This document shows positions 321 to 20,879 of a DNA stretch of 64,000 bases, piece after piece. The translations under genes were made by a program, and so were the position numbers. Origin of the DNA: Lota lota (Eukaryota; Chordata; Actinopteri; Gadiformes; Lotidae); contig JACYXH010000087.1 of the NCBI GenBank assembly GCA_026745465.1, positions 1,541,311 to 1,605,310 of the forward strand. The letters run 5' to 3'. Within the stretch, counting starts at the first letter, position 1; every line of letters starts with the position of its first letter. The notes under the pieces were generated by a model, which saw nothing but the letters and a program-made list of their open reading frames with translations, had not been told where the DNA came from and searched no databases.

Positions 321-3300
321 AGACGGAGCGGAGAAAGCGGGGGAAGGGTGGGGCAAAGAATGAGGATGAAGAGGAGGAAGACTTTGGCGACGACATGTTT
401 GAGCTGAAACAGCTTCAGACGAAAGAACTTAACAAGGTGGGGAACATTTCTCAGTAACACTTTACATTACGGTGTCCTAGTTACAGTGTAACGACACACG
501 TAATGAGCAATTTACCAACCTTTAACCCTATGTTCTTGATATGATAATGTTATGATAATGTTATAATAACGTTCACAGTCTGACCCTAATCCTAACCTAG
601 TGTGCAGCTCGCTTTTTTTTCAACTGTTCCTAACATTAAGCCCTAACCCTAACCACACTGTGTAGTGACATGCTGTCACATAACGTGATGACATATTTAG
701 TCATGCTGTTGAACGTCTTTATATAGCTTAGTACACTGTAATGTAACGTGTAACCACATTTTTGAATCATTATCGTCAAAGGTCTTTAGAAGGGCTCCTC
801 TAACCCTCAACACAGATGAATGTGAACTTGACACCTCTCTAGGGGCAGGTTTGATCTGATGTAGACTAGCTCACTCCATGGATCAGTGATACATAACACC
901 CCTCCAAAACCCAGTGGGAAGAGGACGAAACCTTGAGACCGATCGCTCAAGGGATGGATGCCTCCTAGGATCGCTAGGGGTGCAATTGATACAGGATGGA
1001 CAGCCAAACTCATCCATACACAGAGGGAGTGGTAATATCAGAGCTGTATAAGTTGATCGCAAGCAAGAACCCCTCTAGTAGTTCAAATGCTAGCACAAAA
1101 TCAGCTTCAAACGTTTAAGGGAGGTTTATAATGATCCGTCTCTGTATTTGAGTGGGGTATTGGCAATGCAAATATGGGACCAGCTGATATTGAATGAGTG
1201 GTTCTAATGGTCTTGATGGTTACTGATCTCATGGTTCTGATGGTTGGGATAGTAACTGGTCACCTGATTCTGATGGTTACTGGTCTCATGGTTGTGATGG
1301 TTACTGGTCTCATGGTTGTGCTGGTTCTGTAGATCAAGTCAAACCTTGGGAAAATCATCCTAAAGGAGGAGCTGGGATCTGCTCCACTGAGAAAGAAGAC
1401 TAGATCTCTCCCTGACCAAAGTGTCGGCAGAGGTACGCACATACGCATACACACACACACACGCATGCACACACACGCACACACGCATACACACACACAC
1501 ACACACGCACACACACACGCGCATACACACACACACGCGCATGCACACACACAGTATAAAAAATAATATATTGTATATATATATATATATATACTGTATA
1601 TATATGTGTGTAAGTGTATATATATATATATAACTATATCACTATATCACTTTATATCATCTATATGATATATAGATGATATATATCATCACTATATATA
1701 TATATATATATATATATATATATATAAATTTCATTCGCTATAAAGTATATTCTTCTCTTTATTTCTGCTGTTGCCATAACTGAATTTCCAAAGAATGTCA
1801 TACTCAAATGTATTGCTGACTTTATCCTTCTTTTCAGCCACCAGTTCGAGATCTGCCCATTTGCCAGCATCCTTTGGGACAAGTTTGGCAAGGGTAAGCA
1901 GCTATTGAGGTTATCTCAAATCCCAACGTCCCGTATAGTGTGTGTTAGTATACTAATACCCGTCTCTCCGTGTATATGTGTGCGTGTGTGTGTGTATGTG
2001 TCTCCAGTCAGCAGAATTCCAGTCCGACAAACAAATTCCAGGTAGGAAGCTAGGGTTTTTTCCATGAGAGCACCCATTGATACATTTTCTATCTTAATTT
2101 CCTAGCAATACAAATGAGTCTTCTAATGCTCTGGTTACTTGTGTGTATGTGTGTCGCTCGCTCACGCTAACTCTCACGCTCCCTCTCACTCTCTGTCACT
2201 CTGTCTCGCTCTCATTTGTATCTCACTACCCAGGACTTCAGGTACGGTGTGTTACATTTAAATACACGGTCAAATTATTCACTTCAATTGTAAATGTTGC
2301 ATTGTATAGTATGTAAATCTTGGTTATGGATGTGTGTGTGTGTGTGATCCAGAATGGAGACAGCTCAAGGATGGACAGAGGCAAGTCCCTCCCCAGCATG
2401 ATAGATGAGAAGGTACGGTTGTGAACACACTGTTACAACCATCTAACCCCGACACATCTTATTATACACCACCCAACTTTAATCCTCATCCTCATTTAAT
2501 GCAGCGCATTGCAGTTCATTGATTGATCAATTAGCGGGTTGATTGGTTTGTTGTCTATTGATGGATGGATGATTACAGATTTACCCCTATGAGATGTTGG
2601 TGGTGACTCACAAGGGGAGGAGCAAGCTGCCCTCAGGGGTCGACAGGACAAGGCTGGAGGTAAGTCCACTGTGAGAATTACACCGTGGCATTCAGGGAGA
2701 GAACGCTTTATCATCAGATATATGTGTTACAAACCGAAAAATGTAGCTACGCACTGGGACAAAAAAACGACTAGACGTATGTTACCAAACCCAGAGATAT
2801 CCGTAGTTTAATCAAGGTAACGGTGCGTTTCATTTGGTCGCTTGTCAATGGCGTCATATCCCCCTACCCTTTAACTTCAGAGGAGACAGTAATCCAGTAA
2901 GGTCCAAATTTATTGTTATGATATTCCAATATTGATCTGGCTTACTATGATGTGCTGCTATAACAGCACTGGCCAATTTAATTCGCCACATAACATTATC
3001 TACAGGTGTTTGGGTAGTCGACTCATCTAACGGTGAGTTCCAAGTTAACGTTTACTTAGCTAACGCTACTTGCGGCTATTTCATTAGAATGAAATTACGT
3101 AACTTGAATAAATGTGACTAAACCTAACGTGAATAACGTCACGTCAGATCGATTTTCACCGGCAATGGTGATGAAGACAACTCCCATGTTCCCACGCTAC
3201 TTCAGACGTCATCAAACTATGTATTTTCTTATTCTTCTGATTGTGAGACCCCTAGTGGAAGAAATAACATATTATACCTTTAACGTTACCTATGTCGCCA

Positions 3301-19800: not shown

Positions 19801-20879
19801 GTGTGTGTGTGTGTGTGTGTGTGTGTGCATGCCTGAGTGTGTGTGTTGGCGTGCGTGTTTGTGTGTGTGTGTTTGTGTGTTTATGTGCGTGCGTGCATGC
19901 ATGCGTGTGTGTGTGTGCAGTTTGACAGGTAAAGACCGCTCCAAGCTGAAACTGTGTTCTATTGGTCTGGTCCAGACAGGGTCTTGGAGATGAAGCGGGA
20001 CGTCCAGAAGCTGGAGCTGACCGGGTCCAGGAGGGCTGGCTCGGAGTTGAACCTGGCGTCTGCCGGGAAGCAAAACAAACGCACCTCGTTCAGACAGTCT
20101 CTGGCCATCTGCAGTGAACGAGCTCAGGTGAGAGCCGGCTACCTACAATCTTTCACTAGGTGTTTTGACCAGCTTTGACCAGCTTTACCGAGTGACGCTT
20201 CATCTGTGTGGACTGGATCTGGAGTCATTCTCCTTCTATTCCTGCTGCTTCTGCAGGCGGGTTTTCTGGCACCTCTGCTGCGCCGCACAGCTTCAGCCAA
20301 GACCTCATTGAAAAGAGTCCCCTCCGCGCTGTTCATCCAGCAGGGCAAAGTCTGCCCACGCCGACAGGTTAGTGAGCTACTACTCGGACTACTCCTGTAC
20401 TTCTAGTACTAATACCACCATGCAATACAATGCAACACAATACAACTTCATTGTCTCATTGTTTCTTATTGCCTTTCGCTTCACTTGGCATATACCTGAA
20501 CACATTATCGACATATCAAATAATGTGACAAACCACCAACAAACGATTCCACTAAATACATTGCAAAGTTGTAGTTGTATAGTAGTAGTAGTAGTAGTAG
20601 TAGAACTTGTAGTAGTATTAGTAGTACGTTGGTGCTTAGTTTGTAATAATGAATGAATAAACACACCTATGCATGTACCTCATTTTAGCGCTACATTTCA
20701 TATGAAAGGAAAAAGGTTATAAAACCACAACTCGACAGGAAAACATGAAACCAATGGAATTGACATCACATTATGACTGCTGTGTTTGCTGCATGTTGGA
20801 AGGGTCCACCGGTTAAAACTGATTGTTACGGGTGTGTTTATGTATTTTACAGGAATGTGAGCAGAAGGCTGCTGCTTGA
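7868..20879 (+). CDS. AFAP-family actin-filament-associated protein, AFAP1L2-like, short form
   Basis: Coding exons: 7868-7883, 11263-11397, 12437-12514, 12889-12956, 15229-15364, 15495-15706, 16108-16284, 16626-16679, 16961-17027, 17457-17683, 18857-18972, 19070-19187, 19694-19763, 19976-20127, 20257-20367, 20853-20879. The total of 1764 nt closes in phase and gives 587 aa. The N-terminus [18 protein letters not shown] matches the AFAP leader helix. DNYEEAEPY near residue 133 matches the AFAP1L2 tyrosine motif. PH1 (about residues 185-274) includes [14 protein letters not shown], and PH2 (about 315-405) includes [10 protein letters not shown] and DKQRWLQLL. The C-terminal exons keep the family end motif in altered form ([10 protein letters not shown], then ECEQKAAA). 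Known relatives are adaptor proteins on actin filaments that bind Src-type kinases. It is shorter than recalled AFAP1, AFAP1L1 and AFAP1L2 (about 730-820 aa) and lacks their long charged coiled coil. The exact paralogue name is left open. The splice choice at exon 4 is the least certain. Confidence 0.85.
9060..10234. repeat. Microsatellite cluster in AFAP-like intron 1
   Basis: Within 1.2 kb lie (TG)n 9059-9107, (CA)n about 9240-9330, (TG)n 9486-9548, (TG)n 9605-9648, pyrimidine (CT)-rich 9760-9950, (CA)n 10014-10072 and (GA)n 10138-10234. All are nearly pure. No coding exon is present. Confidence 0.95.
12347..12884. repeat. TG microsatellites flanking exon 3 and abutting exon 4 of the AFAP-like gene
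   Basis: (TG)n occupies 12347-12414, only 22 bases before exon 3. An imperfect TG/GGATGG tract of about 225 bases runs 12660-12884, ending four bases before the exon 4 start at 12889. A further (CA)n (12966-13046) begins just after the exon 4 donor. Confidence 0.95.
13062..14652 (+). mobile_element. Tc1-like DNA transposon, full length, transposase frameshifted
   Basis: The ends are inverted repeats: CACTGCTCAAAAAAATAAAG on the left and the mirror CTTTATTTTTTTGAGCAGTT on the right, each bordered by a TA target-site copy (13060-13061 and 14653-14654). The element is about 1.59 kb, the normal Tc1 size. It lies in intron 4 of the AFAP-like gene, in the same orientation, inserted at an ATATAT tail of a CA repeat. 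The interior is one transposase gene. Confidence 0.95.
13368..14394 (+). pseudogene. Tc1 transposase with a single-base frameshift
   Basis: The natural start is the ATG at 13368 ([12 protein letters not shown]). The frame is lost near 13461, where one extra G sits in gctGGtgtctg. A second frame then stays open from 13423 to the TGA ending at 14394. The N-terminal helix-turn-helix DNA-binding part spans the break. The DDE catalytic region is intact: [19 protein letters not shown] and [11 protein letters not shown] carry the three acidic residues, with the D-to-E spacing of the Tc1 class. Otherwise there is no stop, so the copy is young but should not make full transposase. Confidence 0.92.
15367..15440. 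repeat. (CA)n microsatellite in AFAP-like intron 5
   Basis: Nearly pure CA repeat starting two bases after the donor of exon 5 and filling most of a 130-bp intron. Confidence 0.95.
16336..16902. repeat. TG and CA microsatellites around AFAP-like exon 8
   Basis: (TG)n 16336-16396, (TG)n 16590-16620 directly before the exon 8 acceptor, poly-C (from about 16717) and a mixed (CA)n 16733-16902 after it. Each creates spurious Cys-Val or His-Thr ORFs. Confidence 0.95.
17779..17802. repeat. 24-base G homopolymer
   Basis: Uninterrupted G run in intron 10 of the AFAP-like gene, preceded by GGGGT repeats. It is one of several such runs in the window (37993-38016, 38761-38782, 58966-58993, 63018-63039). 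Confidence 0.97.
18401..18580 (+). mobile_element. tRNA-derived SINE-like copy
   Basis: A box-A-like segment (GGCAGCACAGTG) is followed about 50 bases later by a box-B-like segment (GGGTTTGAAACCC), then a body ending AAGTGCTTTGGATAAAAG. That tail resembles the conserved 3' segment of fish V-type SINEs. It lies in intron 10 of the AFAP-like gene. Family assignment is tentative. Confidence 0.5.

What the first reader, a model, noticed from the sequence alone, without database searches (positions are those of the whole stretch)
321..20879. Dematin next to an AFAP gene: a fourth member of the abLIM-AFAP ohnologue block
Human ABLIM1, ABLIM2 and ABLIM3 each neighbour an AFAP gene (AFAP1L2, AFAP1, AFAP1L1). 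Dematin shares its headpiece and linker with abLIM proteins but has no AFAP neighbour that I know of in mammals. Here dmtn is followed, in the same orientation and 3.9 kb on, by a complete AFAP-family gene. The simplest reading is that this is the missing fourth AFAP copy from the two early vertebrate genome duplications, lost in mammals and kept in this fish.
Basis: partly seen in the sequence, partly recalled or inferred. Interest (0 to 1): 0.85.

Follow-up and report, generated by a model that had tools for sequence, protein, structure and literature searches.

The report
Fourth AFAP gene beside fish dematin
A fish keeps, right behind its dematin gene, a fast-changing fourth copy of the AFAP family of membrane-and-actin adaptor genes; it apparently dates from the early vertebrate genome doublings and is not one of the three described in people.

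Summary
The 3' half of a dematin gene (321-3929) is followed on the same strand, 3.9 kb on, by an intact 16-exon AFAP-family gene (7868-20879; 597 aa in my model).
The window's own genome (G000, 575 Mb) could be searched. It shows four other AFAP loci: afap1, afap1l2 and two afap1l1. In eight-taxon trees the window protein is sister to human + fish AFAP1L2 (UFBoot 96-100). Placement inside the fish afap1l2 lineage is rejected by AU (p 0.007-0.033) but not by SH; 0 of 400 simulations under such nesting gave the observed margin. The topology matches (Hsa8,Hsa10),(Hsa4,Hsa5), published for this paralogon. Three of the four other AFAP loci have an abLIM-type headpiece upstream on the same strand.
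It keeps two PH domains and a YxxM motif; its coiled-coil region is eroded. Codfish papers already mention an actin filament-associated protein across the antifreeze locus from rab14 and mak16. Gar, shark and tetrapod synteny could not be tested. Human AFAP letters were recalled; without them nesting is not rejected.

The parts
321..3929 (+). dmtn (dematin), 3' half: eight exons incl. 8-nt microexon 2234-2241; linker plus villin headpiece; stop at 3927-3929. Further dematin-type exons lie 0.5-2.7 kb before the window start.
   Evidence: splice model; PDB dematin 8iah 2.3e-55; Pfam AbLIM_anchor and VHP; upstream stretches
7868..20879 (+). AFAP-family gene (named afap1l3 here), 16 coding exons: 7868-7883, 11263-11397, 12437-12514, 12889-12956, 15229-15364, 15495-15706, 16108-16284, 16626-16709, 16961-17027, 17457-17683, 18857-18972, 19070-19187, 19694-19763, 19976-20127, 20257-20367, 20853-20879; 597 aa
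   Evidence: all introns GT/AG, no stop; 2cof 1.4e-9; PH; GC at third codon positions 0.649 vs 0.439 in eight of its introns
11263..11397 (+). exon 2: most of the N-terminal helical segment typical of AFAPs
   Evidence: aa 1-50: 18 of 48 identical to recalled AFAP1L2
12437..12514 (+). exon 3: YMFM (Tyr56) at the position of the AFAP1L2 Y54IYM p85/PI3K site
   Evidence: alignment; role of Y54 from PMC4068053
15495..16709 (+). exons 6-8: hold the first PH domain (aa 187-280)
   Evidence: Pfam PH; 42 of 94 identical to recalled AFAP1L2
17457..18972 (+). exons 10-11: hold the second PH domain (aa 324-418)
   Evidence: 2cof match; 31 of 90 identical to AFAP1L2
19694..20367 (+). exons 13-15: shortened, poorly conserved counterpart of the coiled-coil region (aa 485-556)
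   Evidence: 12 of 72 identical to AFAP1L2 vs 44 of 94 between AFAP1L1 and AFAP1L2; no missed AFAP-like exon seen, though one search also missed small exons that are real
20880..23072 (.). 2.2 kb between afap1l3 and rab14: corresponds by gene order to the codfish AFGP cluster I site; no Thr-Ala-Ala repeat here
   Evidence: gene order PMC8622921; repeat scan
23073..25135 (+). rab14 gene
   Evidence: Rab14 4drz E 6.9e-113
28007..31184 (-). mak16 gene (exon fragments)
   Evidence: Pfam Mak16 and Ribosomal_L28e for three fragments; MAK16 8fkp 1.4e-26 for one

Best explanation
The gene at 7868-20879 is a fourth AFAP paralogue (afap1l3), made together with dematin when an ancestral abLIM-AFAP tandem pair was quadrupled in the two early vertebrate genome doublings. 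AFAP1 stayed with ABLIM2, AFAP1L1 with ABLIM3, AFAP1L2 with ABLIM1, and this gene with dematin, the abLIM relative without LIM domains. It has evolved roughly two to three and a half times faster than the AFAP1L2 lineages. Shown: the position, the intact 16-exon structure, the two PH domains, the YxxM motif at the AFAP1L2 PI3K site, and the eroded coiled-coil region. Supported by tree tests with the limits given: branching before the human-fish split. Inferred (my own probability about 0.45): it works as a membrane-cortex signalling adaptor of the AFAP1L2/XB130 type, placed at phosphoinositides by its PH domains and recruiting PI3K p85 through phosphorylated Tyr56, without the actin-cross-linking tail of AFAP1.
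For: Gene models and families. Separate afap1, afap1l2 and two afap1l1 loci in the same genome. Tree and AU tests: window sister to (human, fish AFAP1L2), UFBoot 96-100; nesting in fish afap1l2 worse by 10.6-13.8 lnL, AU 0.007-0.033. Simulations: 0 of 400 under nesting and 0 of 200 in the quartet control reach the observed margin. Fish-only letters also pair the window with fish afap1l2 (UFBoot 95, 97). Linkage: abLIM-type headpiece upstream, same strand, about 8, 18 and 34 kb from the first detected exon of three of four other AFAP loci. Literature, seen as passages: paralogon of human chromosomes 4, 5, 8 and 10, favoured topology (8,10),(4,5), ABLIM family of four in human (PMC2453138; it does not name dematin as the fourth, that is my reading); abLIM C-terminal halves homologous to dematin (PMC6056535); ABLIM and AFAP families expanded before the lobe-/ray-finned split (PMC4906994); ABLIM1 a neighbour of AFAP1L2 (PMC4068053); AFAP1 and ABLIM2 listed together in sheep (PMC10626677), AFAP1L1 and ABLIM3 in chicken (PMC11507135).
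Against: The window branch is very long (1.2-1.8 substitutions per site). SH tests do not reject nesting (0.21-0.31). With human letters limited to the PDB-verified segment, AU does not reject it either (0.085-0.112). Pairing with a fish afap1l1 copy is not rejected in one of four runs (AU 0.052 and 0.063). Under truth H4 (sister to AFAP1L1) the favoured tree still came out best in 20 and 26 of 100 simulations (its margin over H4 was not tallied). Fish afap1l2 has no headpiece hit on the 64 kb of its contig upstream. Nucleoplasmin, a dmtn neighbour elsewhere (PMC6233590), is not on contig C87. The window's dematin lacks the headpiece PKA serine, which abLIMs also lack. No expression or orthologue data, so function and selection are not shown.
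Confidence: 0.85

Rival explanations
1. A teleost-specific duplicate of afap1l2 that landed behind dmtn and then evolved fast.
For: AFAP1L2 is the nearest relative by best BLAST stretch (172 bits vs 119 and 99) and in the trees; SH does not reject it; AU does not reject it when only PDB-verified human letters are used (0.085-0.112).
Against: AU 0.007-0.033 and 10.6-13.8 lnL units against it in the full data; 0 of 400 simulations under it give that margin; chance arrival directly behind an abLIM-family gene in the order and strand of the other pairs would be a large coincidence.
Confidence: 0.07
2. A fast-evolving copy of afap1 or afap1l1, drawn to AFAP1L2 by long-branch attraction.
For: Long window branch; AFAP1L2 is the longest human branch when the window is placed elsewhere; pairing with a fish afap1l1 has AU 0.052 and 0.063 in one run; under alternative truths the AFAP1L2 tree still came out best in 12 and 33 of 100 quartet simulations and 20 and 26 of 100 eight-taxon ones.
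Against: Quartet simulations under the alternatives gave 0 of 200 with the observed margin; sister to the whole AFAP1 or AFAP1L1 clade has AU 0.007-0.047; among the rows seen, YxxM at that site is shared with human and fish AFAP1L2 only.
Confidence: 0.05
3. A decaying pseudogene of the fourth ohnologue: eroded tail and fast rate because it no longer matters.
For: Eroded coiled-coil region, lost Tyr457 site, long branch.
Against: No stop or frameshift in 16 exons, all splice sites canonical, third-position GC well above intron GC, motif and PH cores kept; an AFAP gene at the corresponding place in codfishes.
Confidence: 0.06

Closest known systems
AFAP1L2 / XB130 (KIAA1914)
   Same: Nearest relative in tree and BLAST; two PH domains; N-terminal helix; YxxM at the p85 site; YEEAEP motif; in fish afap1l2 (C530) the match pieces break near the same PH-region intron positions
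   Different: About 29% identity; shorter PH1-PH2 linker (43 vs 86 aa); Tyr457 site absent; coiled coil eroded; beside dmtn instead of ABLIM1
AFAP1 and AFAP1L1
   Same: Family architecture, and in this genome gene order behind an abLIM-type gene on the same strand
   Different: No YxxM at that site; described as having a leucine zipper and actin-binding domain (PMC4068053), not recognisable here
Codfish 'actin filament-associated protein' next to the AFGP cluster I locus
   Same: Same neighbours rab14 and mak16 (PMC8622921, passage); probably the orthologue
   Different: Named only as a neighbour in the passage read; its letters were not available to compare
pde6i, a 2R gene lost in amniotes (PMC4906994, abstract)
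   Same: Same kind of finding: a 2R copy outside the usual mammalian set
   Different: Other gene family and other paralogon

Membership tests
AFAP family | two PH domains | tested here: met
   Pfam PH, two stretches; PH2 of AFAP1L2 in PDB
AFAP family | SH2- and SH3-binding motifs | tested here: inconclusive
   YMFM and NYEEAEP aligned with AFAP1L2 Y54 and Y124, Y457 site absent; one PxxP found, at aa 134, so the SH3 motif is doubtful
AFAP family | C-terminal coiled coil (actin-binding domain in AFAP1 and AFAP1L1, not in XB130) | tested here: inconclusive
   region present but short and 12 of 72 identical; no coiled-coil predictor was run; the C-terminal end still aligns
Dematin | villin headpiece with dematin-type linker | tested here: met
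Dematin | no LIM domains (unlike abLIM1-3) | tested here: inconclusive
   one regex over 20 kb upstream, one low-complexity hit; a LIM family search of the genome did not complete
Fourth 2R (ohnologue) copy of AFAP | split before the human-fish divergence | tested here: met
   AU in four of four runs, simulations 0 of 400; SH not significant; depends on recalled human letters
Fourth 2R (ohnologue) copy of AFAP | topology (8,10),(4,5) of the paralogon | tested here: met
   against PMC2453138
Fourth 2R (ohnologue) copy of AFAP | behind the fourth abLIM-family gene, same strand | tested here: met
   comparison with three other pairs in the same genome
Fourth 2R (ohnologue) copy of AFAP | present beside dmtn in gar, shark, coelacanth | not testable with these tools
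   no such genomes held
Fourth 2R (ohnologue) copy of AFAP | absent from mammals | not tested
   a review gives the family three members (PMC4068053)

The most novel reading that the evidence does not exclude
A fourth, previously unplaced vertebrate AFAP gene (afap1l3) survives beside dematin in ray-finned fish. It has shed the actin-cross-linking tail and become a PI3K-type cortex adaptor. Its 3' flank is the very stretch of DNA in which codfishes later made their antifreeze glycoprotein gene, so this window may show an antifreeze-free state of that birthplace.
Probability: 0.45. Interest if true: 0.65.

Novelty: new member of a known kind. Interest (0 to 1): 0.55.

Why it matters
If right, it completes the abLIM-AFAP quartet of a well-studied 2R paralogon and gives a paired test of what happens to physically linked genes after genome doubling: on one of four chromosomes both partners look trimmed, dematin being without LIM domains and this AFAP without most of its coiled coil. 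It would correct the description of the AFAP family as three genes. It also gives a name and history to a gene that codfish workers mention as a landmark of the de novo antifreeze locus.

Tried and rejected
Headpiece alone as proof of dematin: rejected, it scores dematin and abLIM alike; linker and upstream stretches were used instead. Dematin-type upstream exons do not by themselves exclude an abLIM gene, because abLIMs share that region (PMC6056535). Quartet tree with only three human sequences: kept as first evidence, but it cannot separate an ohnologue from a fish duplicate. Clock arguments from branch lengths: dropped as too weak. Search of bacterial and archaeal contigs for stray fish DNA: 70 pattern hits, none a relative. 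Nucleoplasmin as a further Hsa8 marker: six matches, on C83, C709 and C205, none on C87, a negative result. FGF and LGI families, LIM and AbLIM_anchor families and a check for further AFAP copies with a fish afap1l2 query did not complete. So the count of five AFAP loci rests alone (26 matches: 14 on C87, 3 each on C19, C530 and C367, 2 on C425, and one on C479 with five stops that I set aside as chance). Columns dropped before the tree: the Pro/Ser-rich acidic stretch, because two fish projections there looked intronic and low-complexity, and all columns where the window had a gap or fewer than six of eight rows had letters. C425 covers only 355 of 768 positions. Structure prediction was not tried: the spliced protein cannot be read letter for letter from the window.
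Full report
What is there. The window begins inside a dematin gene. Eight exons from 321 to 3929 give its linker and villin headpiece (PDB dematin 2.3e-55; Pfam AbLIM_anchor and VHP). The headpiece scores dematin and abLIM alike. The linker is nearer to solved dematin (60 of 124) than to a recalled abLIM1 (43 of 117). Two stretches found 0.5-2.7 kb before the window, on DNA fetched from the same contig, also favour recalled dematin (92 and 76 bits) over recalled abLIM1 (71 and 52) and ABLIM2 (45, one stretch). One LIM regex over 20 kb upstream gave a single low-complexity hit; more distant or split LIM exons are not excluded, and a LIM family search did not complete.

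The second gene starts 3.94 kb after the dematin stop, on the same strand: 16 coding exons, 7868-20879, canonical splice sites throughout, no stop, 597 aa. Pfam finds two PH domains and the closest solved chain is the second PH domain of AFAP1L2 (2cof, 1.4e-9). It aligns with recalled human AFAP1, AFAP1L1 and AFAP1L2 from the first helix to the last residues at 28-30% identity, while those three share 42-51%. The PH domains hold best (42 of 94 and 31 of 90 identical to AFAP1L2). The coiled-coil region holds poorly (12 of 72, against 44 of 94 between AFAP1L1 and AFAP1L2). Tyr56 in YMFM stands where AFAP1L2 has its Y54IYM site for PI3K p85; AFAP1 and AFAP1L1 lack YxxM there (role of Y54 from PMC4068053, passages).

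Which copy is it? A quartet with three recalled human sequences joins the window protein to AFAP1L2 by 9.6-14.9 lnL units in two alignments and five models (AU of the alternatives 0.003-0.066). Under two alternative truths the AFAP1L2 tree came out best in 12 and 33 of 100 simulations, but never with that margin (0 of 200). The window's own genome, G000, was then found to be held. With the window protein as query it shows four other AFAP loci: C19 best matches AFAP1 (72% over 591 aa), C530 AFAP1L2 (57% over 666 aa), C367 and C425 AFAP1L1 (53% over 492 and 57% over 355 aa). So the fish has an ordinary afap1l2 as well.

In eight-taxon trees (two alignments, two models) the window protein is sister to human plus fish AFAP1L2 (UFBoot 96-100), and human plus fish AFAP1L2 hold together without it (98-100). 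Placing it inside the fish afap1l2 lineage costs 10.6-13.8 lnL units, AU 0.007-0.033; the conservative SH test does not reject this (0.21-0.31). Sister to the AFAP1 or AFAP1L1 clade has AU 0.007-0.047; pairing with a single fish afap1l1 copy is not rejected in one of four runs (0.052, 0.063). In 400 simulations under the two nesting topologies none reached a 10.5 margin; under the favoured topology 76 and 57 of 100 did; under sister-to-AFAP1L1 the favoured tree came out best in 20 and 26 of 100. With fish letters only, window and fish afap1l2 pair (UFBoot 95, 97; AU of alternatives 0.018-0.065). Adding human AFAP1L2 only where PDB verifies it gives the same best tree, but nesting is no longer rejected (AU 0.085-0.112). 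The dating therefore leans on recalled human letters.

Gene order. In the same genome an abLIM-type headpiece lies upstream on the same strand of three of the four other AFAP loci: about 34 kb before the first detected exon of afap1 (C19), 8 kb and 18 kb before those of the two afap1l1 genes (C367, C425). Fish afap1l2 (C530) has none on the roughly 64 kb left of its contig. Two further headpiece loci, C416 and C383, have no AFAP hit at E 1 or better. C383 matches abLIM1 best; C416 matches the dematin linker (55 bits against 25 for recalled abLIM1) and is probably a second, teleost-duplicate dematin without an AFAP neighbour. Published lists agree for human ABLIM1 and AFAP1L2 (PMC4068053), sheep AFAP1 and ABLIM2 (PMC10626677) and chicken AFAP1L1 and ABLIM3 (PMC11507135); all were seen as passages, and they show nearness, not strand.

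The paralogon. Larsson et al. 2008 (PMC2453138, passages) describe a 2R paralogon of human chromosomes 4, 5, 8 and 10, an ABLIM family of four members in human, and (8,10),(4,5) as the most frequent topology. The text does not name dematin; that it is the fourth member is my reading, helped by PMC6056535, which calls the abLIM C-terminal halves homologous to dematin. Lagman et al. 2016 (PMC4906994, passages and abstract) used ABLIM and AFAP families of this region and found them expanded before the lobe-/ray-finned split; their supplementary trees were not readable here. Chromosome places of the human genes beyond those passages are recalled. With AFAP1L2 on 10, AFAP1 on 4, AFAP1L1 on 5 and dematin on 8, the tree found is the expected one. 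A marker of the dmtn block elsewhere, nucleoplasmin (PMC6233590), was not on the window's 3.1 Mb contig.

How it probably works. Inference: the two PH domains and the p85-type YxxM site point to a membrane-cortex signalling adaptor like AFAP1L2, while loss of most of the coiled coil argues against AFAP1-like actin cross-linking. No expression, binding or selection data exist here; intact frames, splice sites and raised third-position GC (0.649 against 0.439 in eight introns) argue for a working gene.

What is already known. A review gives the AFAP family three members (PMC4068053). Searches for AFAP names with ABLIM, dematin, teleost, ohnolog, synteny or spotted gar listed no paper whose title or abstract start tells of a fourth AFAP gene. 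This covers only the open-licence library, some lists were capped (20 of 23 shown, 10 of 19), and texts were read only where passages are cited. Codfish papers do mention what is probably this gene: in PMC8622921 (passage) MAK16 and RAB14 lie on one side of the AFGP locus and an actin filament-associated protein on the other. The afap-rab14 gap of this window (20880-23072) is therefore, by gene order, the counterpart of the codfish antifreeze locus, and the window holds no Thr-Ala-Ala repeat. Whether this fish is a codfish, or carries antifreeze genes elsewhere, was not determined.

Noticed in passing
20880-23072: The gap between the AFAP gene and rab14 corresponds by gene order to the codfish AFGP cluster I site (PMC8622921); no antifreeze-type Thr-Ala-Ala repeats are in the window. 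It may show an antifreeze-free state of a de novo gene's birthplace.
   Followed up: partly
3816-3929: The window's dematin ends KKKVALF, while solved dematin ends KKKASLF and the second dematin copy at C416 KKKVSLF. The serine is, from recall of the numbering, the PKA site Ser381 that a paper says abLIMs also lack (PMC6056535).
   Followed up: partly
L048 (G000:C416:4042900-4045900): A second dematin-like gene in the same genome with no AFAP hit on its contig, probably the teleost-duplication partner of the window's dmtn.
   Followed up: partly
13063-14651: Tc1-type transposon in intron 4 of the AFAP gene: 27-nt exact terminal inverted repeats (a 62-nt, 84% pair around them) and HTH and DDE transposase domains. 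By eye the N-terminal part of the transposase lies in another frame than the rest, so the copy looks broken.
   Followed up: partly
39621-41795: Spindlin-family gene, minus strand (Pfam Spin-Ssty in two fragments; a third by eye).
   Followed up: no
51641-55026: Exons that look by eye like an MFSD14-type transporter, plus strand; Pfam gave no match for the two fragments searched.
   Followed up: no
58794-61647: Leucine-rich-repeat gene, minus strand, by eye like LRRC2 (Pfam LRR for one of two fragments).
   Followed up: no
34287-34404 and 56033-56324: Minisatellites: an 11-bp unit, 10.7 copies, 98% matches, and a 34-bp unit, 8.6 copies, 84%.
   Followed up: no
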